Assembly (NCBI GenBank): GCA_037042915.1
Contig: CM073197.1
Span: 124,001 to 188,000 of the forward strand
From: Auricularia sp. M13
Taxonomy: Eukaryota > Basidiomycota > Agaricomycetes > Auriculariales > Auriculariaceae
Reading direction: 5' to 3'
Length of the DNA: 64,000 nucleotides
This document shows positions 1,802-63,501 of this stretch, one piece after another. Numbering within the stretch: the stretch's first letter is position 1; each line of letters opens with the position of its first letter. A program made the position numbers and the translations under genes. Below the pieces are notes generated by a model, which was given only the letters and a program-made list of their open reading frames with translations, did not search any database and was not told where the DNA came from.

Positions 1802-4800
1802 CTACGTCGCCTCCTGCAGCGCCCAAATATCCGCGACGGCGCGCGCGAAGACATCAGGCTGGCCAAACAGCAGCGCGGCGTCCGCGGGCGGCGTCATCTC
1901 GCCCTGCACGCCGAGCCAGACCTCCGCGCCCGCCTCCGGCGCGGTATCGTCGTCCGGCACGAACACCGGCTCGGGCACGAACACCGGCTCGAGCTCCTCC
2001 TCGGGCGGCGGCGGCGAGTACGCATACGCGACGCCGTACGACGACAGCGCGAGCTTCCTGCTGTTCTTCCCCTTGCCGTTCCCCTTGCCTTTGCCCTTGC
2101 CTTTGCCTTTGCCTTTGCCCTTGCCCAGACCAGGCCCAACACCGCGCGGCGGGCCCATCTTGGGCGTCTTGGCGTTCGCGACGGGCTGGCGCGGCGTGAA
2201 GTCCGAGTCGTCCGAGTCGTCGAGCACGACGACCGTGCCCGGCGCCGCGGCCGGCGTGCCGTACATCCGCGCCTTTTTGAGCCGGCGCGCGAGCCCAAAG
2301 TCGTCTGCGTCGGTGTCGTCCTCGAGATCTGCACCGGCCAGGGCGAGGTAGTCGGGCTTTGCTCGCGCGCGCTTCTTTGGTGCAGAGGGAGGAGGGGGAG
2401 GGGCAGGCGCGGGCACGAAGACGAGCGGGATGCCGACGAAGCGGCGCGGGTTGCACGGCACGAACGGCTTGCGCACGAAGGAGCTCGCGTCGAAATCGGA
2501 GTCGGGGTAGCGCTGCACGACGGGCGAGACGGGCGCCGTGGTCGAGGAGCCCTCCGACGTGTGCGTGTGCGTGAGTGCTGGAGTAGGCTCGTCGGTCTGC
2601 GGCGCAGCAGGGCGTCAGTAGAAGAAAACAACGGGCAGGAAAAGGAAGCAAAGGACGCACCTTATCATCCTCATCATCACCTTGCGCGCCCAGGAACGCC
2701 GCTAACTCGTCCTTGAGCGTCTTGCTGGGCGTCTGCGACTTGGCCTGGAGAACCCGCGTTGGCGATGGACCATGGCGCTTCGAAGGAGGCACCAGCGACG
2801 GAACATCGCACTTCGTCGACCGCGTCGGCGATGGGACAACGTGCTTTGGCTGCGAAGAACCGCTGGGCTTCTGCCCTTGCGGCGGCGAGCCATGGCGTTT
2901 TGCTGCGCGCGTCGGCGAGACACCATGTTGACCATGCGCCCGCGCCGACGGCGGCCCATCATCCTTGAGCGCCCGCACCGACGACGACCCAATGCGCTTC
3001 GACACCGGCGACGGCTCGCGCGACGACGACGACGACGACGACAGCGTCGACGCGCGCGTAATGTCGAAATCCACGTCCAAGTAGTCCGTCGGCTGCCGGG
3101 ACGCATAGGCGGACGCGAAGGCCGCGGCGAGTGCGCCTGCTGCGGTGGTCGGCTGGTCGACGGCGGCGGTGCGGGTGGACGAAGAACGTGTAGAGGAGGA
3201 GGTAGCCGCGGGACGCGTGGAGGACGAGGTAGAAGGGCGCGCAGCGGCAGAGGCATCCGACGAGCGGCCAGGGGTAGACGACGCGCCGCCGCCGTACGCA
3301 GCGCGCATAGCGTCCGCAAGCGCACTTGCGCCCGACGAGGGCACAGACGTAGCACCGCGCGATGGCTGGGACGCGCCAGAACCAGAGGGCCGGGATGACG
3401 AAGCAGCGCCACTGCCGTACGCAGCGCGCATAGCCTCCGCCAGCGCGCCCGCCGCCGACGTCGACGCAACCGCCTCAGTTGCGCGGGACGAGGATGACGA
3501 GGCAGCCGTGTCCTGCTGCGTCCGTCTGTCGAGGGTAGGCCGCGGCGTCGGCAGGCCCTGCACGACATTGGGCGCAGCTGAGTCCGTGCGCGCGGTGATC
3601 TTGGACCGCGACCGCGGCGTGTCCTGCGTCTGCGACTCGACGCCGGGCTCCTTGCGCGCGGTGATCTTCGACCGCGCCGCATCGTCATCCACGACCGCCT
3701 CCTCCACGCGCGCACGCTTGCGCCCAAGCGGCACGAGCTCCTGCGCCTGCACGCTGCGCCGCACGTCCTCCAGCCGCCGCCCATCGCCCACCTCCCCGGC
3801 AGCGCTGTCTTCAGCGAGCTCATCGCGTTTACGCTTCGTCGTCGTGAGGGTCTTCAGCTTGGGTATGAACATCGCCAGCGCGGCCTTGGCGCCTGCGGGC
3901 GGCGGGGCCACTGCGGGAGGGCGGTGTGCGTCGACTGTAGATGGACGGCGGGCGTCGGAAGAGTTCGCGGACTGAGCCGAAGATGGCGCAGACGTTAAGC
4001 CAGACGGCTGCACCGCGACAATGGGCGACGGGTCCGCCGCGACAATGGGCGACGGGTACGCCGGGTCGGCGCTCCCCTCCGCATGCGCATCCTCGTCGAC
4101 GAGCCCAAGATCAGTCTCGACGCGCAGCGCGTCCGAGAATGACGAGCCGGATTCGGGGAACGACGAGGACTCTGAGCGGCGCGGCGGCGCGGGCGCGAGC
4201 GGGCCCCTCGCCATCGTTGCGGGGTGCGGCATCTCAGCACGCGGAGCCGCACGCGGCGTCGTGGATGCTGGTGCGGCGCGCGGCGTCTTCGACTGGGGCG
4301 TTGGAGACGGCGAGGACTTCGCAGTCGCCGGGAACGACAGCGGCGACTCGACGAGAGGGGGCGCGGGTGCGGGCGTGAGCAGGCCCGAGTCGCCGTCGAA
4401 CAGCGAGTCGGCGTCGAACAGCGAGTCCGGGGCGTCGTCCTCTTTGTCGTCTTCGTCGTCGATGGTTAGGTCTACAGCCCAGGCGAGGCGTCAGAACGGC
4501 CGAATAGGTAGAGGTGGGTGCAGGGACGCACCGATCGTTTCTGCTTGTTGAAGTAGCAGCAGCCGTTCCGGTTTCGAGTGCGCGCCTCGGGGCTGTTCTG
4601 CGCGCGTACGTTCTGCTAAAATGCGCACGCGTCAGCCGATAACGCAGCGCCGATGTAATGCAAATGCAAAGCACGCACCTCGCCGCATCGGCGGCGGCAC
4701 AGCGCCCACGAACCACCTCCTCCGTCCACACCGCACATCCTCCGCGCGCGACGCACGCTCGCCCGCCCACGCGCGCGCGAACTCCTCCCTGGCTGCAGGC

Positions 4801-21100: not shown

Positions 21101-22668
21101 ATACGATGGAACGTGCTCCCTGCGTACCCGAAGCCGTGCACGCCGGTGGCCAGCTCGCGGAAGTTGCGCGCCGTCTTGGGCACGACGTCGTCGTACAGCC
21201 GGAACGTGATGCGCCCCGCCGGCGCGTTGTTGATCGTGATGTCGAACTAGGGGAGGGCCGGGCGTTAGTGAGTGCGAAGGGAAGGGAGGGGCGGGCGGGA
21301 AGAGGACGGGCGGGGAAGGGCGGGCAGGGAAGGGCGGGCGGGAAGAGGACGGGCGAAGGAAGGGGATGGGCAGCGACGAGGAAGCGAGCGCGCGGAGGGG
21401 AGCGTAAGGCAGCGAAGGCAGGTGAAAGCGGAACGAGGGAGGCGAAGGCGGCAGACCGGGGAACGGGGCGCACGTGACGCTGAGGGCCGATTGCAATGCG
21501 ACAAGCACTGCTGAGCTGGACAGACCGCCGCGCGTCCCACGACGGAGTGTCGCCATCTGCGCGGACTCGTGGGTGTTTACGCGCGCGCGACTGCCCGCGA
21601 GACGAAGCGCCCGTAGTGCTCCAGCGCACCGTCAACTGCGACGCCGACGCCCATACGAATCGGGTATGCGTCCGTGCACGCAACTGCTCGATACAGCAAC
21701 GCCGGAAACCGACCCTGCAGCGCCCGCCAACGAGCGCGGACAAGGTGCTCGCTCTGAAGCCCCAGCGTTTGCTGACAGCACCAACAGCTGGCGCGCGGGG
21801 CTCGTGTGACAGCGCTGGGTCCTGGCTGCACGCGGTCGCATTTTAAGAAGCAAGAGACCAGCAGCGCGCTCTCTGGTTGGCGTCCGCGGGCGACACGACG
21901 ACGCCGAGCATCAGCAAAGCCACAGCCAGTTGGCAGCGCGCGCTGCAGCCCTGCGCGGGTTTGCGCCGGCGCGCCAGCGTTTGCTGGGGCATGGCGACCC
22001 TGCTGACGCAGACAGCGCACAACGTCGAGCGCGGGGCCAGAGGCAGAGTGCGTGCGTAGACCCATGGAATGGGAGGCGGCTCCGCTGACGCGGTTGCTCG
22101 GTCCGCCAGAATGAGCTTGCACCGACGCACGGCAGCTCACAGGCGCGTCAGATGGAGCCCGTGACCGCCCTTGGTCGGACGACGACGGCTGACGCATACG
22201 CGCCCAGACGGACTGACCAGGTTCGCGCTTTTGCGCCGGCGTGTGCTGACAGCAGCGCTGGCAGACGACGCGCGCGTCTCCCTGCGCCGTGCGTCTGCTG
22301 GCGCACGACGACACCGCTGACGTCGAGCGCGTCGCCTGTGCCAGCCTAGCACGGCGCGTAGGGTATGACGCGGAGGGCACCGGCGCGAAGGGCCGAAGTA
22401 ACCCCTCCAGCGCGTCGCGCTCGGGCCTCTGCCAGCAGCGGGCAGGAAAAGGGAAGGGAAGGGAAGACCTCACAACAAAACTCACAAAGACATTCTCCCT
22501 GCTCACAGCGTCAGCGCCCGCATCCCCGTCCGAATCTGGCTGCAGCACGCACTTTTTAGCTACGGTCGAGTTCATCCGGACGCCGAGTCCGAGTCCCGCG
22601 ACAAGGCCGAGCCGGGTGGCAGAGTGGAAGGACGGGCGGAGGAGCGGGCGGGCGGCGACGGCGAGCAT
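18178..22668 (-). CDS. Cyclophilin-type peptidyl-prolyl isomerase with N-terminal presequence, five exons
   Basis: Exons are 22668-22486, 21246-21091, 19671-19596, 18528-18449 and 18342-18178; every junction is in frame and the total is 220 codons (219 residues). Residues 1-38 are Arg/Ala/Leu/Ser-rich without acidic residues ([19 protein letters not shown]), a mitochondrial-type presequence by composition. The rest is a complete cyclophilin: [23 protein letters not shown] joined to [43 protein letters not shown], and [12 protein letters not shown]. The catalytic Arg (FHR), Phe-Met-x-Gln, the Trp used in cyclosporin binding and the His are all present. It should catalyse prolyl cis-trans isomerisation. 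Introns 1-3 are 1239, 1419 and 1067 nt, against about 50 nt elsewhere, and carry repeats; intron 4 is 106 nt. Confidence 0.9.
19751..20046. repeat. Direct duplication of about 125 bp inside cyclophilin intron 2 region
   Basis: A block beginning GGACTGGACTGGAGCGCGCA and ending near GCGCGGTGACGGCGGCT occurs at 19751-19874 and again at 19919-20047. The second copy has small insertions (GGC near 19957, GGGAGTC near 20008). Confidence 0.8.
20248..20720. repeat. Minisatellite, four units of about 118-137 bp, in cyclophilin intron 2
   Basis: Units start with AGCCAGTTCGTG at 20248, 20371, 20508 and 20626. Each contains GCGCCATGTCAGC(G/A)GGCA and most contain GCGAGCATG. Unit lengths differ (123, 137, 118 bp). 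The fourth unit diverges after about 70 bp. Confidence 0.8.
21250..21480. repeat. G/A-rich low-complexity tract (pyrimidine tract of intron 1 on the transcript strand)
   Basis: Repeated GGGAAGGGCGGGCGGG-type blocks on the plus strand. On the minus (transcribed) strand this is a pyrimidine-rich tract of over 200 nt lying directly upstream of the intron 1 acceptor at 21247. Confidence 0.7.
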
Positions 22669-32943: not shown

Positions 32944-35900
32944 ATGCCTTACACTCGGTTGAACGCTGCCGCGCTCACCGATCAAGACGCTCTCATCGTC
33001 GTCCTCTCCTCCGACGCTGTCCCATCCTTTCGCACACTCGTCGACTCCGGCTCCGAAGATCAGTTCCTCGATACTCAGTTCGCCGAGAGTCTTCGACTCC
33101 CTCAAAAGTCTCTCGATCAACCGCTACGCCTTCGGCTCTTCGACGGCTCCTATCGCGGTGTCATCTCCAAATACGTGTCGCTTCCCGTCCGCTTCCCTTG
33201 CGGAACTTCGATGATCATCAACTTCCTCCTCACCACTCTAGATCCGACTTGCTCTGCAGTGCTGGGATACCGCTGGTTGGCCCGCTACAATCCTAGGATT
33301 GACTGGTTCCATCACCGCATCTCTTTCCCCACTCGTGTCTCGCCCTCGGATCCCTCGGGTTTCGTCCCTGGGTTTTCGCTCGACTCGGATCCTCCGACTC
33401 CGTCGTCACCTCCTCCCGCGTCACGTACTCTGCCTCCCGAACCGCCGATGGACGAAACCGCCCTTCGCGCGGCCGCTGCCCGCATCGACATCAAGATCAT
33501 CGGCGCCGCAGCCTTCGACACCTCTCGTCGACTTCGCGGCTCGATGGTCTCGGCCATCTACATTCGAGATCCATCGGTGCCCGCTCGCTCTGCGTCTGCC
33601 AGCAACCCGGCCTCGGAAACCGGCGAAGGCATCCCCGAGTGTTATCACGAGTTCCTCGACGTCTTCTCAAAGGAGGCCTCGAATCGACTCCCTGAACATC
33701 GGCCGTACGATCTCAAGATCGACATGGAAGAAGGCAAGCCTCTCCCATCCGGTCCGATCTACTCGCTCTCCGAGCCCGAGCAACTCGCGCTTCGGGAGTA
33801 CATTCAGGATAACCTCAGCAAAGGACACATTCGCTCTTCGTCGTCCCCGGGTGGCGCCCCGGTTCTCTTCGTCAAGAAGGCCGACGGTTCTCTTCGCCTA
33901 TGCGTCGATTATCGTGGGCTCAACAAGATCACTCGGAAGGACAAGTACCCGCTTCCGCTCATCTCGTCCACGCTCGACCGCCTTCGCACCGCCAAGAAGT
34001 TCACCAAGCTCGATCTTCGTGTCGGATACAGCAACGTTCGCATCGCGGCCGGCGACGAGTGGAAGACTGCCTTTCGAACGCGCTACGGCACCTACGAGTA
34101 TCTCGTCATGCCTTTCGGTCTCACAAACGCTCCAGCCGCTTTCCAGCGCTTCATGAACGACATCTTCTCCGACCTCCTCGACGTCACGGTCACCGTCTAC
34201 CTCGACGACATCCTCATCTACTCGGACGATCCCTCGAAGCATGAGGAACACGTTCGAGAGGTCCTTCGACGGCTGCGGGAGAATGACCTCTTCTGTAAGC
34301 CCGAGAAGTGCGAGTTCAATGCTGACACCATCGAGTACCTCGGGTACATCATCAGCCCCGAGGGCATCAGCATGGACCCGAAGAAGATTGCCACCCTCCT
34401 CGAGTGGCCCGTTCCTCGCAACGTTCGCGACATCCAGTCGTTCCTCGGCTTCGCGAACTTCTATCGACGATTCATCTACGACTACTCCGATATCGTCGTC
34501 CCGCTCACTCGTCTCACTCGGAAGACCGCAACGTGGAACTTCACTCCGCAATGCCTCGCTGCGTTCAACGAGCTCAAGAAGGCGTTCACTTGCGCTCCCG
34601 TCCTTCACCACTTCGATCCCGCTCTCCCTCGCGTCGTCGAGACTGACGCTTCCGACTACGCGATCGCGGCGATCTTCTCGCACGTCCTCCCGGACGGCTC
34701 TGTTCACCCGTCGCTTTCCATTCGCGCACGCTCACTCCCACCGAGCTCAACTACGACACGCACGACAAGGAGCTACTCGCGATATTCGAGGCGTTCGAAC
34801 TATGGCGACACTACCTCGAAGGGGCCGAGACCCCAATAGACGTCGTCACGGACCACAAGAACCTCGAGTATTTCTCTACCACGAAGATGCTCACTCGTCG
34901 GCAAGCTCGCTGGTCCGAGTACCTTTCTACCTTCAACCTCCTCATTCGCTTTCGACCCGGTCGACTCGGCGGCAAACCCGATGCTCTCACTCGCCGCCAC
35001 GACGTCTATCTCAAAAGGGGGATGGTGGCTACGCCAGCGCAAACCCGCAGAACTTCCGACCCGTTTTTACTTCGGAACAGTTCGCCGCTTCCCTTCGCGC
35101 GACGTATGCTGAAGAGACTTTCCTTCGCGCAGCCACGATCATGGACACTCAGTCCATTCGGGATGACATTCGCGCCTCGTACGACTCGGACGAACTCGCT
35201 CTCGACATTCGCTCGAAACTCGGCACCGATGACGCGATCAACTGGTCGGCCTCGGACGATGGATTCTTGCTGTTCAAGGGCAGGATCTACGTACCGAACG
35301 CTCTCGATTGTCGCCTTCGTATCCTTCGCGAAAAGCACGATCACCCGCTCGCTGGCCATCCGGGTCAGAACAAGACACTCAAGATGGTCGCCCGCGAGTA
35401 CTACTGGCCCGACCTGCGCGACTCGATTCGTACCTACGTCCAGGCCTGCGTCACCTGTGGGCGCAGCAAACCTCGACGACACAAGCCGTACGGTCGACTT
35501 CAACCGCTCCCGATTCCGCTTCGCAACTGGGACTCGATCTCGATGGACTTCATCGAACAGCTCCCTGAGTCCAACGGTTACACCGCGATCCTCGTCATTA
35601 TTGATCGCCTCTCGAAGCAGGGTATCTTCGTCCCGACCAAGGGCAAGATCACCTCCGAAGAACTCGCGCGTCTCTTCCTCATCCACGTCTTCGCCAAACA
35701 TGGCGCTCCCTCGCACGTCTCTACCGACCGCGGCTCCAAATTCGTCTCCCGCTTCTTTCGCGCACTCGGCTCGCTCCTCAACATGACCATGCACTTCACC
35801 TCGGGTCACCACCCGGAGGCGAACGGTCAAGTCGAACGCACGAACCAGACGCTCGAGCAGTACCTCCGTCTCTACTGCAACTACGAGCAGGACAACTGGT

Positions 35901-36658
35901 CCGAGCTACTCCCTCTCGCCGAGTTCACGTACAACAACACCCCGAACGACTCGACTGGTGTCTCGCCTTTCTTCGCCAACAAGGGTTTTCACCCGAACAT
36001 CTCCGTCTACCCCGAGCGCGACGTTGCCTCTGCTCGCGCCCGCGACTTCGCTGTCGACATCCACGAACTGCAGGACGTCCTGAAGGAGCAGATCGCTGCC
36101 GCTCAGAAACGTTACACTGCATCTGCGAATGCTCGACGCACTCCCCCGCCTGACTTCAAGGTCGGCAACATGGCCTACGTCCTCTCGGAGCACATCAAGA
36201 CGACGCAGCCCACTCGCAAACTCGCCGATCGCTACCTAGGCCCGTTCCCGATCGTCGATCAACCTAGCTCGCAATCGTTCACCCTCAGCCTACCCGACTA
36301 CCTCGCTCGCGTACACCCGGTCTTTCACGTCTCGCAACTCGAACCCCACCCTCGAGAAGCGTTTCCCGGTCAACGTCAAGAACCTCCTCCGCCCGTCGTC
36401 GTCGACGGCGAGCAAGAGTACGAGCTCGAAGTACTCAGCGTACGCATCGACAATCGCCATCGTCACTCGCGCCTTCGTTTTCGCATTCGCTGGATCGGTC
36501 ACATCGGCACTCCCGACGACCCCGAGACCACCGAGATGGGTTCCGAAAATCTCGAACACGCGCAAGAAGCAGTTCAAGACTTCTATGCTGCAAATCCCAG
36601 CGCTCCCGGCAGTTATCAAGAATTCCAGCAAATCCTCAAGAAATTCGAAAACATTTAA
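32944..36658 (+). pseudogene. pol (protease, RT, RNase H, integrase, chromodomain), with two frameshifts
   Basis: ATG at 32944 lies 47 bp after the gag stop. Protease: [51 protein letters not shown] and the catalytic VYLDDILIYS. RNase [14 protein letters not shown], then after a frame change at about 34710 [17 protein letters not shown] and [12 protein letters not shown] second change at about 35015 (a G run) leads to the integrase: zinc-binding HPLAGH...CVTCG, then the D,D,E triad in [14 protein letters not shown] and HPEANGQVERTN. The C-terminus has the gypsy YLARVHPVFHVSQLEPHP block and a chromodomain (EYELEVLSVRI...FRIRWIGH...ENLEHA), which in chromoviruses directs integration to heterochromatin. 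Both changes are -1 and lie in homopolymers. Confidence 0.9.
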
Positions 36659-51637: not shown

Positions 51638-54600
51638 ATGCTTACAAGACGTACTGACAGTGTATGTACCGACTCAAGCCCTAAAATTACTCTATTTAAA
51701 CGTCAGAGACGAAAGGACATTCGCGGCGTTGACTCAGTCGACATGCAAGTCGATCAAACCTGGAAGATCGCAAGACTGCAAAAGAATGTCTTATGGTGGG
51801 GCATCTGCAAGAGGACACAGGCCGCACACCAGTGCCCGCACTGTGGCATCGAATTCCTGACTGGGGAGAGCGTAGGATTCTGTTGTGGACCGAATGGAGA
51901 GAAACTCAACGAAGTCGCGCCACTGCCACCTCTCCCACATGAGTATTCCATTTTTCTGCAAGATCGCCAGATATCCTCACTGTCTCGGCTCTTGAATTTG
52001 GTCTTTTCCTTCGCTCAATTAGAGTCGTCGCAGCCTTTCCCTTCGCTTCCTAACGGGTCTCATTTCGCCGTGCAGGGCCGGATTTTCCACAGAGTCCGTC
52101 CTGAACATGTCAACTCAGCAGTGAGGTGGCTTCTATACGACGGATTTATGAAGGAAAGTGTACCCCACGCGCAGTCTAACTGGTTTAGGAAGTTACCTCC
52201 AGCTTGGATAGACGCTCTCGGAGCTGCTCTCCTACGGGTAAATCCTTTCGTTCATTACATCAACGTATTCCGTCAGTCTCCAGAAAGCAACTTGCCCAAC
52301 GTTCAGCTGTTGATTCGAGACGCCGGAGCGAACGAGATTGCGGGAATCATGTGTTTTGACAACACAGTTGCCTCCGATGCCAAGGTACCATTGATGTCAT
52401 TGAAAGCAACGAAGATTCTAACACTTTCGCAGCTTAGGTCTATTGTGATTTCAAAGAAAAGTCGCCCAGCCAGGGAATTTGTGCATAGCACCGAGGAAAC
52501 GTCTCAAAACGTGCATCAAATATCCGCTGTTAACCGGTTCTGGGAGCCGCTGGTCTATCCTTTGTTCTTTCCTCACGGCACGCTCGGTTGGGGCAGGCAA
52601 GCCTCTGCACTCGCTCGCCAGGGTCCCGCAGATGACGACAACGTAACCAGTCAGCTTTGGCACTGTCGCGCGCGGTTACTTCGCGAGGAAAGGTTTGCGC
52701 TGTTCGGTCGCCTCACAAACGAATACGTGGTGGATATGTTCACTCGGAACATTGAATCAAGGCTGGCCTACATTCGCTCTGGCCAGCTTGCCGCTCGCCG
52801 CGAGGACGCTGCGTTGATGGATGTCGATCCGGCGTCCGACTCAGAGAACGTGTTTCTGCCGTCGTCCTTCCTTGGATCGAACGCCTGGTGCTCAGAACAA
52901 ATTGCGGACGCTCTGACCGTTGCTGCGAACTGCGGGGTACCGACCTTCTTCATCACGATGACTTGCAATCCAGACTGGCCGGAGATACGCGAGAAACTGT
53001 TGCCTAACCAGGAATGGCAAGATGCACCGCTCATCGTCGCGCGCGTCTTCAAGCAGAAGTTGAATGTGTTGTTCAAGACGCTAAAGACCATGTTCCCCAA
53101 TGCCGGCAAAGTGGTACGTTCTGCACATGTGCATTGTCGCAACGCCATACTGAGTGGCCCAGATCTACCGCCTGTTTGCTGTTGAATTTCAGAAACGCGG
53201 GCTACCTCACTGTCATATCCTCATCAAGTACGAAAAGGATTGCTTGACCGCTTATGACGTGGACAGGGTAGTCTCTGCAGAGATGCCCACGACTTTGGCC
53301 GACGCAGCTCTCGTTCACCGCTTTATGCTGCATAACCACCCGTTACCGAGGAGATCTGACTCAGCGGCGAAAGTTTCGAGTCTCCCGGAATACTGCCAAC
53401 GACGCGCTCATCGGTTTTCGAGTCATGCAGACGCGGTCGCTGACGTTTGTCGGTTTGGCTATCCTAAACCCGTGCATCCAGCGACGACATTCTCTTTCGA
53501 TGGTCGCCCGCAGTACCGACGTCGGTCTCCTGCAGATTCTATGGTTGTACCTCATTGCCTTCCGCTCTTGAGGGCACTGGAATGCCATATAAACTTCGAG
53601 GTCGCTAACTCATCTCACATCTTCCAGTATTTATTCAAGTACATACGAAAAGGTGAGCTGTACGCTACGACAGTCTCATTATGGCAGCTGAAAAGAGTCA
53701 AGGTGTGGACAGAGCTTTTGTGAGGCTTCGACCAGATGGTACCGAGATAATAGACGAAGTCGAAAGCTACTGGCGCGCGCGATATCTTTCCGCCGGTGAG
53801 GCTGCCTGGCGTATTCTTGGATTCCATGTCTCTGGGAAAACACCTGGGGTTACCGGCTTGCCCATGCACCTTCATTCGTCGCGCAAGCACCGTCAGTACC
53901 GTCGCGTTAATGGAGCAACTAGCGCGTTTTCTCTGCTGGATCGCTATTTTCATCGGCCGACGGGTTTCTTCGAGTCTGGAGGCAAACTCGTCTCATTTTC
54001 TGACCTGACCTACGCCGAGTTCTACACGAAGTTCCGTCACGTACCGTGGGATCCTCGTCTCATTGGCAGGGCTGGTGTCTTTGAAGAGTCCGATATCGCC
54101 AACGGAGACTGGAAGCGCCTCGTTGTAAGACGCGCGGATTCGCATCGTCATTTCGTACGTATCGCTTCGGTAAAGCCCTCACAGGGCGAGCTGTTCTATC
54201 TGCGCGCGATCCTCCTTAATCGCCCGGCGCGCTCTTTCGATGACGCACGGACGATTGGCACGATTACATATGATTCGTATCAAGAAGCGGCGCAGGCTAT
54301 TGGTCTCTTTGCTGAAAAGAATGAGGCTCAGTGCTCTCTTCAAGAAGCTATTCAGTCCTTGAGAACTCCGCGTCAAATCAGGCTCCTATTCGTGCATCTG
54401 ATTGTGCACGACCCTGGCGAGGTGGATTTTCCTCTGAATCTATGGCATCTTTTTCGCGATGAGCTCAGCATGGATTTCTATTACGAATCTGGTGGCCTGC
54501 AATCCACTGCTTACTCACGCGCTCTGCAAGAGCTGGCAGTGATGTTCGAAGAATTTGGGCGCAGTTTGCAGGATTTCAATCTACCACAGCCTGACTCCTT

Positions 54601-56100
54601 CATTGGTGAAGCAAATTACGAACGAGATAGGTGGAATCCCCATATCGAGAAGTTCAAGCGCAACCTTGCCATCTCCGTGCCGCGCTTAACTCATGAGCAG
54701 CTTGCAATCTTCGACGAAGTCGTTGACGCAGTTACTAATGACAAACCTCTGTTGTTATTCATCGACGGGAAAGCCGGGCGAGGTAAGACATTTCTTATCA
54801 ACACCATTTGCGACTTCGTTCGCGCCCGTGGCGAGATCGTCTTGCCCACAGCTACATCCGCGTTCGCGGCGCTGTTGTATGAAGGAGGACGGACCACGCA
54901 CTCATGCTTCAAGGTATCATATCGGGTGTATTTCAGTTTATATTCACTAATGCTGTGTTCAAGATCCCTGTGGACGAAAACAACGAGCTATTACGATCTC
55001 CGATAGAGCACGGAGATTCTCGGGCTCAATTACTACGCGAGTTTCGCGTCTTGATCTGGGATGAAGCTCCAATGGCTAACCGCGCAGCTTTGAGTTGCGT
55101 AGACGAGACGTGCCGTCGTGTTACAGGCGAGACCCTCCCATTCGGCGGGAAGATTGTCATACTCGCGGGAGACTTTCGGCAGACATGTCCCGTTGTTCGG
55201 CGTGGAACGCGAGCACAGGTCGTGGATGCATCTATCCGCTGTTCACCTCTTTGGGACAAATTCTCTGTTCGCAGGCTCACTATTCCGATCCGGAATGCAG
55301 AAGACATTGACTACGCGACTTGGGTGGATGCCATTGGGGACGGCGCTGGACCTGAGGTTCCGCTACACCTGCTTCGACATGTTCACACGGAGGACGAGAT
55401 GATCAACTTTGTCTACCCCCAGGAGGTCATTGACGACCCTAAAGCGTGTCTCAAGCGTTCCATTCTCTGCCCAACGAACAGACAGATCGATCGATACAAC
55501 GCGGCTATTCTCAAGCGAGTTCATGGTGTCTCCCGCACCTACCTTTCGGCGGATCGGATCAAAGAGGAGGATCAAGCTGGCATTCCCGAGCGCGGGGCGG
55601 CAAGCTTAGATTATGCAGCAAAAGCACATTTACCTGGTCTTCCCGACCACGCCGTTACTATCAAGACTAACGCGGTCTTCCGATTGTTGCGGAATTTCTC
55701 GATAGCGCGTGGTTTAGTAAAAAACGTCCGCGTGGTCGTCATCGATGTCGGGGTGCGTCTCATCACCGTCCGTCTGCTGAGAGACACTGTGGCAGGCGTC
55801 GAGATTGATCCTGAGGATATTTTAATCCCTCGTATAACCTTCGAGACTTACCTACCGGAGACTCGTCGAACCCTGCAACGCCGGCAGTTCCCCTTGGCAC
55901 CAGCCTATGCAACAACATTTAACAGTTGCCAGGGACTCACACTCGATTTTGTGGCCCTAGATCTCTGCCGACCGGTGTTTTCTCATGGACAGCTTTACAC
56001 AGCCGTGTCACGTGTTCGCCGACGGGAGCACGGGATTGTGAGACTTCCCGCTGGACAGTTTCTCGCCGAAAATGTAACCTACGTTGAAATCCTGCTGTAG
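51638..56100 (+). CDS. Helitron Rep/PIF1-type helicase, four exons
   Basis: Exons 51638(or 51743)-53113, 53163-53652, 53703-54913 and 54964-56100; three introns of 49-50 nt restore one frame of about 1435-1470 residues. N-terminus: CPHCGIEFLTGES...CC, then the Helitron-like N domain. Rep motifs: FFITMTCNPDWPEI, EFQKRGLPHCHIL (HxH) and FQYLFKYIRKG (two tyrosines). PIF1/RecD helicase motifs: IDGKAGRGKTFLI, LIWDEAPMA, ILAGDFRQTCPVV, TFNSCQGLTLDFVALDL and YTAVSRVRRREHG. Helitrons use the Rep tyrosines for rolling-circle-like transposition and the helicase to unwind. All key residues are present, so it may be active. The termini (5' TC, 3' hairpin plus CTRR) were not located, so the element's extent and cargo are unknown. 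It lies between two clusters of family D and L genes on the same strand. Confidence 0.9.
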
Positions 56101-58566: not shown

Positions 58567-61287
58567 ATGCGAGCCATTCGCTGCCGAGTTTCCCTCGAAC
58601 TCCACGACCAGTGTCTGCTCAAAACTGAGGTCTGCAATGGCGAGGAAATTAGGACGTATATGATCAGTTCTGTGATCAAAAGTTCGTCGTGACGCGCTCA
58701 CCCGCTAGCCAACAGTTTTAACCCCCCTTTTAGAAGTCAATAGCCCGATATTTTTTATCTATACCACCAGAGAACAGCCTTATCCCGATAGCTCACTCGT
58801 CACCGTCGCGGCTACCGCCAACCTGAGCTCCGGGACGTTCAGGGCCGACATTTACGACGTTCAGCCAATGAAGCTGGACAACGGCCCGCCTGCGCCTGCT
58901 CCATACGTCAATCCTCCTCGCCTGTTTTTCGACGCCATCATTCTGCGCGAATCAGCTGAGCTCCCGTGGTCCAACAACACGGGCGTGGGCGTGTTCGAGT
59001 TCGACGTGTCTGTTGACGTCTCGAATACGGTGAGTCGGACGCGCACTTCGCTTTATCACATGCTCATTATTGCAGGACGGGTTGCCAACACAGGTTGAAG
59101 TGCGGTCAGTCTTACTCATCAATCCTCCCTCGTGCACGAGCTCACGATGTTACAGCTGCACCATGCCCCGGACCAAAAAGGTTTTCAAGACTCTTCAGCC
59201 GTTGTATATCACACAGAGTGTGGGGCTGGTTGGGGACTTTTGCGGTTGGGTGAACGCGAAGGTCATTTGGATCGAGGTTCACACTATTGAGATCCTCGGT
59301 GCACCGGTTTCCACGTCGAGCCAGAGGCTAGACACCTCAGCTCGCTCTCGCGGTGGAAGTCCAGTCAAGGGCATCGGTCGCAGTAATGGGTAAGTCGTGC
59401 AAGTGTGCTTGGGTATATTCAGGCATCAATGTGTTCCAGACGTCGCGGACGCGCGCATAGTCCCGTCAAAAATTTCCCGTCGCGGTAAGTTTCTATATTG
59501 CTCGGATTGAACAGATTTGTGTATTGACATAAGCGCAGACAACGCGCTTCCAGTCCTTCGAAGGAACTCAGCTCCTCGTTCGACAATTTCGATCTGAGGT
59601 ATATTTCGTCAACCTTTTCCGTTGGTATTGCTGATCTCAGACCCAAGATCCCGCTCATCCAGTCCTGTCAAAGATCTCCCAGAGGCAGGAGGGGATCAAT
59701 TCCCAGTGTGCGTCTAAGTATACCGGGCGGAGGTTAATATAACTGAAATGTCCGCAGAACTCCCGAGGCGTCGAGGACTTTTTTCCTCAGCCCCTCGCTC
59801 AATGTTACCCCGCTTCAGCTCCTGTGAGCGGAGCTACCTCGCCTGCACCGAAACTGATGCCGCGAATTCCAGTCCTTTTGTTCCTGTTCCCGAGCCCGTC
59901 AAGGCAGCTGAAAACGCGTGAGTTCTCTTTCCGGATGCTAGGGAATCTCTGTTGATATCGTTGCTCGCTACAGGCAAAGTCCCCTCCTCGATAGTAATGG
60001 CCGCGACATCGGAGAAGTCTATTCAGAGGGTGCTCTTCAGCCGGGGTAAGGGAAAGTTTGTCTACAGAGCCGTAAGACATACTCACACCGGTCTTAGCGA
60101 CTTGGACGAATTGCTCAAGGGTTTGCCGAGTCTCCAATCTCTCAGGTCTGCATTCCTTCAGGTGTCATACGGCTATTGACAGACTCGATTATAAAGCGGT
60201 ATCGAAGACTTCGGCAATCCCGATTTGTCGCTCACAGGCGCGAATTCCAGCGGAAATGACGGGTACACGACAGCTAGCATCGATAGTCCCGTTCGACCTA
60301 TCGCACGTCCGGGCCAGCAGTTGGAGGACCCCGCGTCGCTCGAGTACGTGGTTTACACGGGTTGAGCGAGTGCATCCTGACAAGCTGTCATAGGGTCGTG
60401 GATAAGAAACTTCAAGGAGTCATTGCCGCGCAGACTCGTGAGGCGCCATCTGCTGGGTACGTCTACGTCGTATGCTGCTCGAAGATGCTCACTCGAGTTT
60501 TCACTACAGCCAGCCTGTTCACGCATGCGGTGTAGCGGCGGAGTCTTACTCCGACTATTTACAGTGCGCAGGCTATATCTGCGCTAGATTGCGGTCTGAC
60601 TTCGTGATAGGGACCTTGAAAAATCACTGGCTTCGTTCGACGGCGCCCGAGTTCAGCAGATGAACCCATCGCCTGACAAAATGTGAGGCATCTGTTTACG
60701 CTCTCCGAGAGTTTTGACTTATCTACCGACGGTGTCTTTAGACATGATACGAAGCGAGCTGCGCCGGACAGCGAAACGTTGGCGTGGTTGGGCCAGCCAT
60801 CTCAGAAACTGTGAGTTTCTCGCCTTAGTCACTCAGGATGTCGATCTTATAATCCTTTGTAGTTCCTCCGAAGACACCACCGAGTATGCCGAGTTATGCA
60901 CTGCACAGCTATCCTGTGATCCAGAGTATGTGACCGCCACTGTCCACCTGGGTCAATCAGCTTATATCTTCGAGATATGTCGCTCCTACGGACGCCGATC
61001 TTGCCGCAGCGTTTGCCGCTTGGCAGGCCCCTCAGAATCTCCCGACGGCAACGTGGTCCTTCGACGCGTAGTCATGCCAGTCTGGTCTCTATGTATGCCA
61101 CCGCGATCCCATTTTCCTTCTCTATTTGCTATTTTTCAGACTGCGTCTTGGGCACTACTGTAATAATCTCCGCGTGCACTTTCGCATGTCATTCCTTTCG
61201 CCCCCTCGCCCTCGCCCTCGCCCTCGACCTCGCCCTCGCCCTCGCCCTCGCCCTCGCCCGAATTGCCCGAGCTTGCTCCAGGTTTGA
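58567..61287 (+). CDS. Family D member D6: 19-exon gene with a symmetric micro-exon tail
   Basis: Core exons: 58567-58681, 58734-59029, 59076-59104, 59156-59389. Tail exons: 59440-59484, 59539-59598, 59648-59707, 59758-59823, 59873-59917, 59974-60045, 60098-60145, 60197-60343, 60394-60456, 60510-60542, 60611-60682, 60742-60810, 60863-60925, 60975-61067, 61140-61287. The sum is 586 codons (585 residues). Core: exon 1 of 115 nt in phase 1; module 1 SSLVTVAATANLSSG; split Arg-147 then CTMPRTKKVFKTL; module 2 VGLVGDFCGWVNAKVIWIEV. From 59440 to 61067 fourteen exons of 33-147 nt, each a multiple of three and in phase 2 at both ends, alternate with 49-72 nt introns. They encode Ser/Pro/acidic peptides (RSRSSSPVKDLPEAGGDQF). 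The last exon reads the CCCTCG array as Pro-Arg repeats. Some splice sites were chosen for frame; see findings. Confidence 0.6.
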
Positions 61288-61381
61288 CACGCGCGCCCTC
61301 ACCCTCACCCTCACCCTCCGTTGCCCTCACCCCCACCCTCACCCTCGCCCGAATTGCCCGAGCTTGCTCCAGGTTTGACAC
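61201..61381. repeat. CCCTCG/CCCTCA hexamer arrays with a 36-bp direct repeat
   Basis: (CCCTCG)n with one CCCTCGA variant at 61203-61260, then CCCTCA/CCCCCA units at about 61298-61346. Each array is followed by the same 36-bp segment (GCCCGAATTGCCCGAGCTTG...) at about 61256 and 61346. Confidence 0.85.
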
Positions 61382-61549
61382 GTGCCCTACTATGTCCGGT
61401 CTGCCAAGCGTACTTTAGGGTCTGAGTTCGTGATGAACGTAGACGATTGTCCAAACTGGCACATGCGAGTGTATGATCGAAGTAGAATCGTACTTTTTGG
61501 TACAGTCCGATACGGTGCGGACGGATTCGTCCGTCAACAACGTCTTCAG

Positions 61550-61598: not shown

Positions 61599-62060
61599 AT
61601 GCCAGCCTATAGTTACCCTGCAGACTACATGCCTGCCCTCATCCATGACAGCTTGCGGGAGTTTTCCAATTTGCCCGCCGACGAGGTTCCTCGGAATCGG
61701 CTCTCAGTGAGGCCAAGTCAGCTCTACGCCTTGAACATAAATTGATTGCTTGAATTACAGCTGTATATGACTCTGAAGAATCCTTTCGTTGGGAGCTGGC
61801 TTCCTGCAGTTCAATGCAACGATACAGGTTTTGTGACTGTGGCTGATCCCCGAGCATGGATCGAGGAGGCCAAGGAGGATGGTTCTGACGTTCGAGCTGA
61901 TCTACTCATGTGCAAGGTTATCATCGCTCAGGTTGCCCAAGATGCCTACTGGGAACTTAAAAATAGTGAAAAATCAGACCTTCAAGAGCACTTCCATTTT
62001 TTCTACACCTGGGAAATCAGCTCGATAGCCTTGGTCGATATACTTCTGCAGTTTATCTAG
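61599..62060 (+). CDS. Family L member L4, two exons
   Basis: Exons 61599-61706 and 61761-62060 around a 54-nt phase-0 intron (GTGAGG...TTACAG), 135 residues; a second in-frame ATG at 61629 would give 125. Exon 2 starts LYMTLKNPFVGSWLPAV, the family signature with Tyr second and LP after 13. Then GFVTVADPRAWIEEA, a helix CKVIIAQVAQDAYWEL and FFYTWEISSIALVDILL. It is closest to L3 (VYLSLNSPFVVRGLPRV, GFVVVPDLGEWIRRV). No signal peptide or domain known to me. Confidence 0.65.
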
Positions 62061-62946: not shown

Positions 62947-63501
62947 ATGTTGAACTCTTCGATGGCCATACGTCCAGCTGGCGACCTCGATGTGAAACCG
63001 TCTATAAAGACGGAGCAAAAGGAGAGCTCCAAGGACATTCCCGACATTACTGTTGGAGCAACTCGAGGATCGGCGACACAGTCAGGGAAGTTTGACGGAG
63101 TTCCCATCCTCAAGGTCCCTGAGAATGATCTCGAGGTGAGTGCTGACTCGGCTATTGGATACTCCAACTTAAACATGTTACAGGCGTACATTGGCCAACG
63201 TATGCCTCACATTCTCTCGGATCTTCCTCGGATAAGCATATCTCGCATGGACAATCCGGGCTATGTTCGGCGTTGGATTCGTCGCGCCGAAAGAGCCACA
63301 CACTGCGTGGAGGAGCTCACCCATAGATTGACACTGCAGCAATCGATTGTTGAAGCCGTAGTCGGGTTGATGATGACGGAGGTATTGTATGAGTCCGGCG
63401 ACGACGAGAAGCGTCAGTTGGTTCGTGACGCGGTAGATAATTGGTTGTGGAAGTTCATGGACTTTCACAACAGAGCTATGGATATCTGCAGAGCCATGTA
63501 A
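62947..63501 (+). CDS. Family L member L5, two exons
   Basis: Exons 62947-63135 and 63184-63501, a 48-nt phase-0 intron (GTGAGT...TTACAG), 168 residues. Exon 1 is a disordered, Lys/Asp/Ser-rich N-terminus ending FDGVPILKVPENDLE. Exon 2 opens AYIGQRMPHILSDLPRIS (Tyr second, LP after 13) and continues GYVRRWIRRAERATHCVEEL, THRLTLQQSIVEAVVGLMM, RDAVDNWLWKFMDFH. The helices align with L2. The intron is in frame, so unspliced RNA would also be translatable. Function unknown. Confidence 0.7.
   Translation: MLNSSMAIRPAGDLDVKPSIKTEQKESSKDIPDITVGATRGSATQSGKFDGVPILKVPENDLEVSADSAIGYSNLNMLQAYIGQRMPHILSDLPRISISRMDNPGYVRRWIRRAERATHCVEELTHRLTLQQSIVEAVVGLMMTEVLYESGDDEKRQLVRDAVDNWLWKFMDFHNRAMDICRAM

What the first reader, a model, noticed from the sequence alone, without database searches (positions are those of the whole stretch)
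59440..61067. A fungal micro-exon gene: 14 consecutive small exons, all phase 2-2
After a normal family D core, D6 continues through exons of 45, 60, 60, 66, 45, 72, 48, 147, 63, 33, 72, 69, 63 and 93 nt separated by 49-72 nt introns. Each exon completes a codon split 2|1 and ends the same way, so any subset could be skipped without frame loss. Symmetric micro-exon genes are known from schistosomes, where they generate protein variants; I know of no such gene in a basidiomycete. Caveat: for the exons starting 59648, 60098, 60197 and 60611 I chose between alternative splice sites using frame and peptide composition. Uniform phase 2 is not required by frame keeping alone, and the other tail exons use the nearest canonical sites.
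Basis: partly seen in the sequence, partly recalled or inferred. Interest (0 to 1): 0.92.

Follow-up and report, generated by a model that had tools for sequence, protein, structure and literature searches.

The report
Helitron-borne fungal gene with symmetric exons
In a fungal genome, a gene that appears to ride on a rolling-circle transposon ends in about a dozen short exons that all break their codons at the same place, so modules can be added or dropped without upsetting the message; the architecture is real and shared by its relatives, but whether the cell actually skips exons is untested.

Summary
The array is real. Corrected in two places, it is 13 internal exons of 45-147 nt (median 63), all phase 2-2, plus a terminal exon: the 33-nt exon is better read as 54 nt (60510-60563), and the last exon ends at an in-frame TAG (61069-61071). 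Phase-free splice modelling scores the tail far above 60 dinucleotide shuffles; 12/15 introns are phase 2 here, 14/14, 11/14 and 15/16 in three paralogues. In an unanchored scan the paralogues show runs of 15, 11 and 9; this copy shows only 5, equal to the longest in 108 background predictions. Junctions agree between this copy and two paralogues; tail dN is below (saturated) dS. Another copy carries a tandem duplication of a three-exon block, introns included.

All 14 RepHel loci found have a D-family hit within 0.4-11.3 kb. It is most likely an accessory gene of a large Helitron; element ends were not found. The first three tail exons each encode an SPxK motif. Skipping, expression and protein function are untested. 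These are small exons, not classic micro-exons; the closest analogue is aphid bicycle genes.

The parts
58567..58681 (+). core exon 1 (115 nt), ends phase 1
   Evidence: phase-free Viterbi; homologous first exon in C3, C7 and C12 copies
58734..59029 (+). core exon 2 (296 nt), ends phase 0
59076..59104 (+). core micro-exon (29 nt), ends phase 2; 29 nt in all four copies modelled
59156..59389 (+). core exon 4 (234 nt), ends phase 2, with a first SPVK motif
59440..59484 (+). tail exon 1, 45 nt, RRGRAHSPVKNFPS
   Evidence: 45 nt in the C3 and C7 copies. The free model prefers an in-frame acceptor 21 nt later
59539..59598 (+). tail exon 2, 60 nt, RQRASSPSKEL..
   Evidence: 60 nt in C3 and C7. The free model prefers an in-frame acceptor 15 nt later
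59648..59707 (+). tail exon 3, 60 nt, RSRSSSPVKDL..
   Evidence: 60 nt in C3 and C7
59758..59823 (+). tail exon 4, 66 nt
   Evidence: 66 nt in C3
59873..59917 (+). tail exon 5, 45 nt, PFVPVPEPVK (VPEPVK-like in all four copies)
59974..60045 (+). tail exon 6, 72 nt
   Evidence: free model ends it at 60055
60098..60145 (+). tail exon 7, 48 nt
60197..60343 (+). tail exon 8, 147 nt
60394..60456 (+). tail exon 9, 63 nt
60510..60563 (+). tail exon 10, 54 nt (reader: 60510-60542, 33 nt; corrected)
   Evidence: free model; intron log-odds 6.1 against -3.6; end peptide aligns with paralogues
60611..60682 (+). tail exon 11, 72 nt (72 nt in C3, 69 nt in C7)
60742..60810 (+). tail exon 12, 69 nt
60863..60925 (+). 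tail exon 13, 63 nt (63 nt in C3 and C7)
   Evidence: free model ends it at 60951
60975..61071 (+). terminal exon, 97 nt, stop TAG 61069-61071 (reader: 93-nt symmetric exon)
   Evidence: YVAPT..AAW..SFD aligns with C3; free model starts it at 61010
51638..56097 (+). Helitron RepHel gene (Rep/Helitron-like N-terminal domain and PIF1 helicase), in several open frames
   Evidence: PF14214 E 7.8e-30; PF05970 E 2e-29 and 6.7e-21
   Evidence: iterated profile search
61599..62060 (+). small conserved neighbour gene, unknown function
   Evidence: tblastn; read by eye in the C3 copy; DNA matches at four further places
62989..63501 (+). second conserved neighbour gene (..SDLPRI..YVRRWI..), unknown function
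   Evidence: tblastn; 20 matched stretches in own genome, this copy included

Best explanation
The feature is the intron-dense 3' part of an accessory gene carried by a large multi-gene Helitron-like element. It encodes a conserved core (about 224 aa) followed by a fast-evolving, probably disordered tail (about 320 aa). The tail exons are symmetric phase-2 modules. The array grew and shrank by duplication of whole phase-2 exons and by intron loss or fusion; uniform phase lets such changes through without a frameshift. Most likely the exons are mainly spliced in constitutively and give a tail with several SPxK sites that could tether the core or be phosphorylated by the host during the element's replication. 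Shown: exon architecture, its conservation between copies, one block duplication, and co-location with RepHel. Inferred: disorder, phosphorylation, a role in transposition, and constitutive splicing.
For: Exons and phase. Unanchored scan at an intron prior of 1/60: runs of 15, 11 and 9 phase-2 introns in the C3, C12 and C7 copies, against at most 5 in 108 predicted background genes. Junctions fall in the same alignment column or within 6 columns in C5, C3 and C7. Tail dN/dS for C5-C3 is 0.58/1.94; in the other pairs where it could be computed 0.75/4.19, 0.68/2.47, 0.94/2.28 and 0.90/2.74, all with saturated dS. Block duplication in C12 (exons 36-63-117 twice) with 77% DNA identity including introns, seen in blastn of the C1 and C12 copies. 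C12 has four SPxK-type exons (one reads SPFH) where C5, C3 and C7 have three. A distant relative at C5:4.01 Mb has only 7 exons, yet its last five introns are phase 2. [ST]Px[KR] occurs 5, 3, 3 and 6 times in the four tails, against shuffle means of 0.38-0.61. RepHel by Pfam; 14 of 14 RepHel loci found have a D-family hit within 0.4-11.3 kb.
Against: Helitron ends (5' TC, 3' hairpin and CTRR) were not found, so the element's limits are unproven and the gene could be a neighbour carried along by segmental duplication. The window copy's own free-model optimum is less clean than its paralogues: 12 of 15 introns phase 2, and in the unanchored scan an unbroken run of only 5, no longer than the background maximum. 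With a milder prior of 1/150 the unanchored runs are 4 (C3), 10 (C12), 8 (C7) and 4 (here), background maximum 5 in 97. The hand-set models score below the free optimum in C5 (-18.6 against -7.5), C7 (-3.1 against 7.8) and C12 (11.3 against 24.4). C12 junctions match the others only in part. In the distant copy the phase-2 share (5 of 6) is within the shuffle range (maximum 0.86). The distal exons are near saturation. No domain, PDB or clear PHROG match; both fold predictions are uninformative (pLDDT 44). No expression data.
Confidence: 0.6

Rival explanations
1. A true micro-exon gene: the cell skips different subsets of the symmetric exons and so makes many tail variants, as in schistosome MEGs.
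For: All 13 internal tail exons are multiples of 3 with the same phase, so any subset can be skipped in frame. The internal tail exons of the hand-curated C3, C7 and C12 models are multiples of 3 too.
Against: No transcript data. Most introns fit the genome's splice-site model: 13 of 14 are positive before the correction, and the exception turns positive after it. Exon count and positions are conserved between C5 and C3, which suggests the whole set is used.
Confidence: 0.2
2. A host gene cluster that was duplicated together with a neighbouring Helitron; the gene has nothing to do with transposition.
For: Element ends not found. Some clusters are interrupted or spread out (C1: 32 kb between the D5-like and D6-like parts; C5: D hits at 3973 and 4010 kb). 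The C1 and C12 copies are 99% identical like a recent segmental duplication.
Against: 14 of 14 RepHel loci found have a D-family hit nearby, on eight contigs, with conserved gene order in the three copies checked. The matched RepHel stretches are only 65-76% identical to the window's, so the association is old.
Confidence: 0.2
3. The array arose by repeated intron gain into a once continuous tail (introner-like insertion with a phase preference), not by exon duplication.
For: The distant relative has large tail exons of 180 and 243 nt; by eye, most neighbouring tail exons show no similarity to each other.
Against: Homologous introns of C5 and C3 are no more alike than non-homologous pairs (0.43 against 0.41), so no trace of a common inserted sequence is left to see. 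The SPxK exons look like repeats, and C12 shows a real block duplication.
Confidence: 0.15
4. Spurious model or decayed pseudogene.
For: Only the splice model links the pieces; the C1 copy is apparently frame-broken.
Against: Free-model score above all 60 shuffles in each of five copies tested, frame kept in four copies, dN below dS where computable.
Confidence: 0.04

Closest known systems
Bicycle genes of aphids (putative gall effectors)
   Same: Many unusually small internal exons, almost all phase 2; average about 17 exons (PMC9168663, passages); this gene has 18 exons.
   Different: Insect genes encoding proteins with CYC motifs; no CYC tripeptide in the protein here. Nothing in the passages ties them to mobile elements. 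Sequence relation was not tested and none is claimed.
Micro-exon genes (MEGs) of schistosomes
   Same: Much of the coding sequence is in small symmetric exons.
   Different: MEGs have very small symmetrical exons and use alternative splicing to make variants (PMC4350168, passages). Here the exons are 45-147 nt and skipping is untested.
Captured genes (capA, capB) of Pleurotus ostreatus HELPO1 Helitrons
   Same: Genes of unknown function, without conserved domains, downstream of RepHel in a fungal Helitron, some of them highly expressed (PMC4289320, passages and section 14).
   Different: One to four cap genes in elements of 1.5-13.7 kb; here genes lie on both sides of RepHel, with matched stretches over about 19 kb shared with the C3 cluster. 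The passages read do not mention a symmetric exon array.
Plant Helitron RPA genes (e.g. Mothra)
   Same: Helitron accessory gene; RPA has single-strand DNA binding sites (PMC4683698, passages).
   Different: No match of the D core to Pfam or PDB entries. An OB-like fold was only suspected by eye.
Small exons in basidiomycete P450 genes; Trichoderma Xlr2 microexon switch
   Same: Small exons in fungi (PMC1184071, passages; PMC11121469, passages).
   Different: As described in the passages: scattered or single micro-exons, no uniform-phase array mentioned.

Membership tests
Schistosome-type micro-exon gene | most of the coding region in very small symmetric exons | tested here: inconclusive
   13 of 13 internal tail exons symmetric, but 45-147 nt, median 63; none is 36 nt or shorter after correction
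Schistosome-type micro-exon gene | exon skipping produces protein variants | not testable with these tools
   no transcript data
Bicycle genes | many small internal exons, nearly all phase 2 | tested here: met
   introns 3-17 of 17 are phase 2
Bicycle genes | CYC motifs in the protein | tested here: not met
   no CYC tripeptide in the 544-aa translation
Helitron | RepHel gene: Rep (Helitron-like N) plus PIF1 helicase | tested here: met
   PF14214 and PF05970 above their cut-offs
Helitron | dispersed copies | tested here: met
   RepHel relatives at 13 further loci, matched over 0.8-4.4 kb stretches at 65-76% identity
Helitron | 5' TC, subterminal hairpin and 3' CTRR ends | not tested
Helitron-encoded RPA (single-strand-binding) protein | detectable RPA/OB-fold homology | tested here: not met
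   no Pfam match (E up to 1, up to 10) and no PDB match (E up to 1); fold models uninformative

The most novel reading that the evidence does not exclude
A transposon, not the host, invented a MEG/bicycle-like modular gene: a giant fungal Helitron keeps an accessory gene as an array of symmetric phase-2 exons, adds and loses SPxK-bearing modules by exon duplication, and uses exon choice to vary the tail of a protein it needs for replication or for coping with the host.
Probability: 0.2. Interest if true: 0.85.

Novelty: new variant of a known kind. Interest (0 to 1): 0.62.

Why it matters
Genes with many similar-sized exons of one phase are said to be rare in most genomes (PMC9168663, passage) and are known from parasite and insect effector families. 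A fungal case with several copies per genome at different stages, from about 4 to 16 tail exons, makes the growth of such arrays directly observable, and placing it on a Helitron would tie modular exon evolution to a mobile element. It also warns that ordinary annotation may miss it: an ab initio model with the genome's usual intron frequency breaks the gene into fragments.

Tried and rejected
Protein database search: switched off, so relatives in other species could not be sought that way. Viral-contig scan with the core alignment: 35 pattern matches, no relative. PHROGs: 2 families, each matched by 1 of 5 members, best E 0.034, taken as chance. Two fold jobs: the D2 open frame, which holds a probable in-frame intron (pLDDT 44.3), and core exon 2 of this gene with three window relatives (pLDDT 43.9); neither used, no fold search made. 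An OB-fold reading of the core rests on pattern impression only and is not claimed. The C1 copy was not counted as independent, since it is 99% identical to C12 and apparently frame-broken. First background count (59 genes, longest run 5) used a low intron prior that would break micro-exon genes; repeated with relaxed priors on both strands, overlaps not removed: 97 genes at 1/150 and 108 at 1/60, longest run 5 in both. In C3, two tail introns have weak or GC donors and are free of stops, so 3363-3725 may be one exon. C3, C7 and C12 exon limits were partly set by hand from homology; free-model recovery there was 13/14, 13/13 and 16/16 donors and 13/14, 10/13 and 10/16 acceptors, and the C7 path contains an empty exon, an artefact of the script.

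Full report
Setting. The window is C5:124001-188000 of an unnamed 52.1-Mb genome in 14 contigs. The genome has no relatives here and the protein database was switched off, so the comparison rests on copies within the same genome.

The exons. Two corrections follow. The 33-nt exon 60510-60542 leads into an intron that scores -3.6; the donor 21 nt downstream gives an intron scoring 6.1 and a 54-nt exon whose last residues align with two paralogues. The last exon meets an in-frame TAG at 61069-61071, and its peptide aligns with the ends of the C3 and C7 copies, so it is terminal. The gene then has 18 exons and 544 residues; introns 1 and 2 have phases 1 and 0, introns 3-17 are all phase 2.

Not chance. 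I trained a splice and coding model on 200 kb of other genome regions plus the window; the tail's own introns were kept out of the splice-site training, while coding statistics used all predicted genes. Run from the core with phase left free, the model scores the window tail at -7.5; 60 dinucleotide shuffles average -62.6 with maximum -47.4. Twelve of 15 introns come out phase 2 here, 14 of 14 in the C3 copy, 11 of 14 in C7, 15 of 16 in C12 and 5 of 6 in the distant C5:4.01 Mb copy, against shuffle means of 0.32-0.34 in the first four and 0.48 in the last; the distant copy's share is not above the shuffle maximum of 0.86, the other four are above theirs (0.67-0.73). In a scan with no anchor and an intron prior of 1/60 the longest same-phase runs are 15 (C3), 11 (C12) and 9 (C7), but only 5 for the window copy; the largest in 108 predicted background genes is also 5. 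With a prior of 1/150 they are 4, 10, 8 and 4, background 5 in 97. So the case for the window copy rests on the anchored model and on its paralogues. Background introns of the 200 kb have phases 0/1/2 in the ratio 84:69:44. At the genome's ordinary intron frequency the model breaks the gene into fragments. The corrected window model scores -18.6, lower than the free optimum but above all shuffles.

Relatives. Core similarity finds five loci: this one, C3:2.414 Mb, C7:3.606, C12:1.093 and C1:8.406. The C1 copy is 99% identical to C12 and apparently frame-broken, so four independent copies remain. C5 and C3 match one to one in all 14 tail exons, and the first five have equal lengths (45, 60, 60, 66, 45); C7 has one junction fewer, where two exons are fused. 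Junctions lie in the same alignment column or within 6 columns in C5, C3 and C7; C12 agrees only in part. Tail amino-acid identity is 41% for C5-C3, with dN 0.58 and dS 1.94; over all six pairs it is 24-41%, dN 0.58-0.98, dS 1.94-4.19 or not computable. dS is saturated, so the ratios are rough. Homologous introns of C5 and C3 are no more alike than random intron pairs (0.43 against 0.41), while the first five tail exons are 53-71% identical and later ones fall to 13-49% (before the exon-10 correction).

How the array grows. In C12 a block of three exons (36, 63, 117 nt) occurs twice in tandem; blastn of the C1 and C12 copies shows the duplicate at 77% DNA identity across exons and introns. C12 has four successive exons with an SPxK-type motif (one reads SPFH) where C5, C3 and C7 have three. 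The motif [ST]Px[KR] occurs 5, 3, 3 and 6 times in the tails of C5, C3, C7 and C12; 0, 14, 16 and 0 of 2000 shuffles reach these counts. A much more distant relative at C5:4.01 Mb (L045), lying between a D-family hit and a hit to the second neighbour gene, has only 7 exons, yet intron phases 1,2,2,2,2,2; the neighbouring paralogue D5 has 1,2,2,2. So phase-2 tail introns are probably ancestral in the family, and the small-exon array was built on them. Intron gain remains possible for exons that show no mutual similarity.

The Helitron. The stretch 51638-56097 encodes a Helitron RepHel: PF14214 at 7.8e-30 and PIF1 at 2e-29 and 6.7e-21. DNA search places relatives of this stretch at 13 further loci with 65-76% identity, several over only part of the gene; a hit to the family of the paralogue D5 lies within 0.4-11.3 kb of each of the 14 RepHel loci including the window (coordinates typed). 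The searches score only the best candidates, so other copies may exist. In C3, C7 and C12 the order RepHel, D5, micro-exon gene, second neighbour gene matches the window. In C1 the D5-like and D6-like parts are about 32 kb apart. I therefore take the gene to be an accessory gene of a large Helitron-like element. The ends of the element were not found. In Pleurotus ostreatus, Helitrons of the HELPO1 family carry one to four genes of unknown function or viral type downstream of RepHel, and no RPA domain was found in RepHel there (PMC4289320, passages and section 14).

Function. The core has no match in Pfam or PDB and only chance-level PHROG matches; two AlphaFold2 jobs gave pLDDT 44 and were not used. 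The tail has 67-71% disorder-promoting residues against 49-57% in the core. A role as a DNA-handling accessory with a phosphorylatable tail is inference.

Comparison. The nearest architecture is that of aphid bicycle genes, with many small exons nearly all in phase 2 (PMC9168663, passages); schistosome MEGs share symmetry but have very small exons and use alternative splicing to make variants (PMC4350168, passages). A paper of 2024 states that functional microexons had not been described in filamentous fungi (PMC11121469, passages), although micro-exons were reported in basidiomycete P450 genes in 2005 (PMC1184071, passages). The rows listed by ten literature searches (in several only part of the papers found was listed) name no paper on a uniform-phase small-exon array in a fungus or on a Helitron. 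The library holds only open-licence papers, so this is weak evidence of novelty.

Noticed in passing
window 43001-64000: The palindrome GGTACC is about 22-fold enriched in ten intergenic stretches of the cluster against 200 kb of background (12 counts over both strands in 2667 bases; stretches picked after the motif had been seen by eye). GGTACC/GTACCG/CGGTAC have 1.76 per kb in the cluster, 0.52 in window 1-42000 and 0.46 in the background. Possibly a binding site of the element's own proteins.
   Followed up: partly
C7:2104-2118k, C2:2054-2067k, C9:2651-2664k, C1:5426-5439k: Four clusters score nearly alike in two searches, so they are probably recent copies; they would be the best place to find the element's ends.
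   Followed up: no
window 61199-61387: Tandem CCCTCG/CCCTCA hexamers within a 91-bp unit present about twice, just downstream of the gene.
   Followed up: no
L021:3363-3725: In the C3 copy two of the tail introns lack stops and have weak or GC donors, as if two introns were becoming exon.
   Followed up: partly
L023:3820-4495: Tandem duplication of a three-exon block, introns included.
   Followed up: yes
window 21666-22349: Automatic model with eight introns, seven of them phase 1; not examined.
   Followed up: no
window 32944-36658: Predicted 1205-aa protein whose start looks like a retrotransposon protease region (recalled resemblance, not searched).
   Followed up: no
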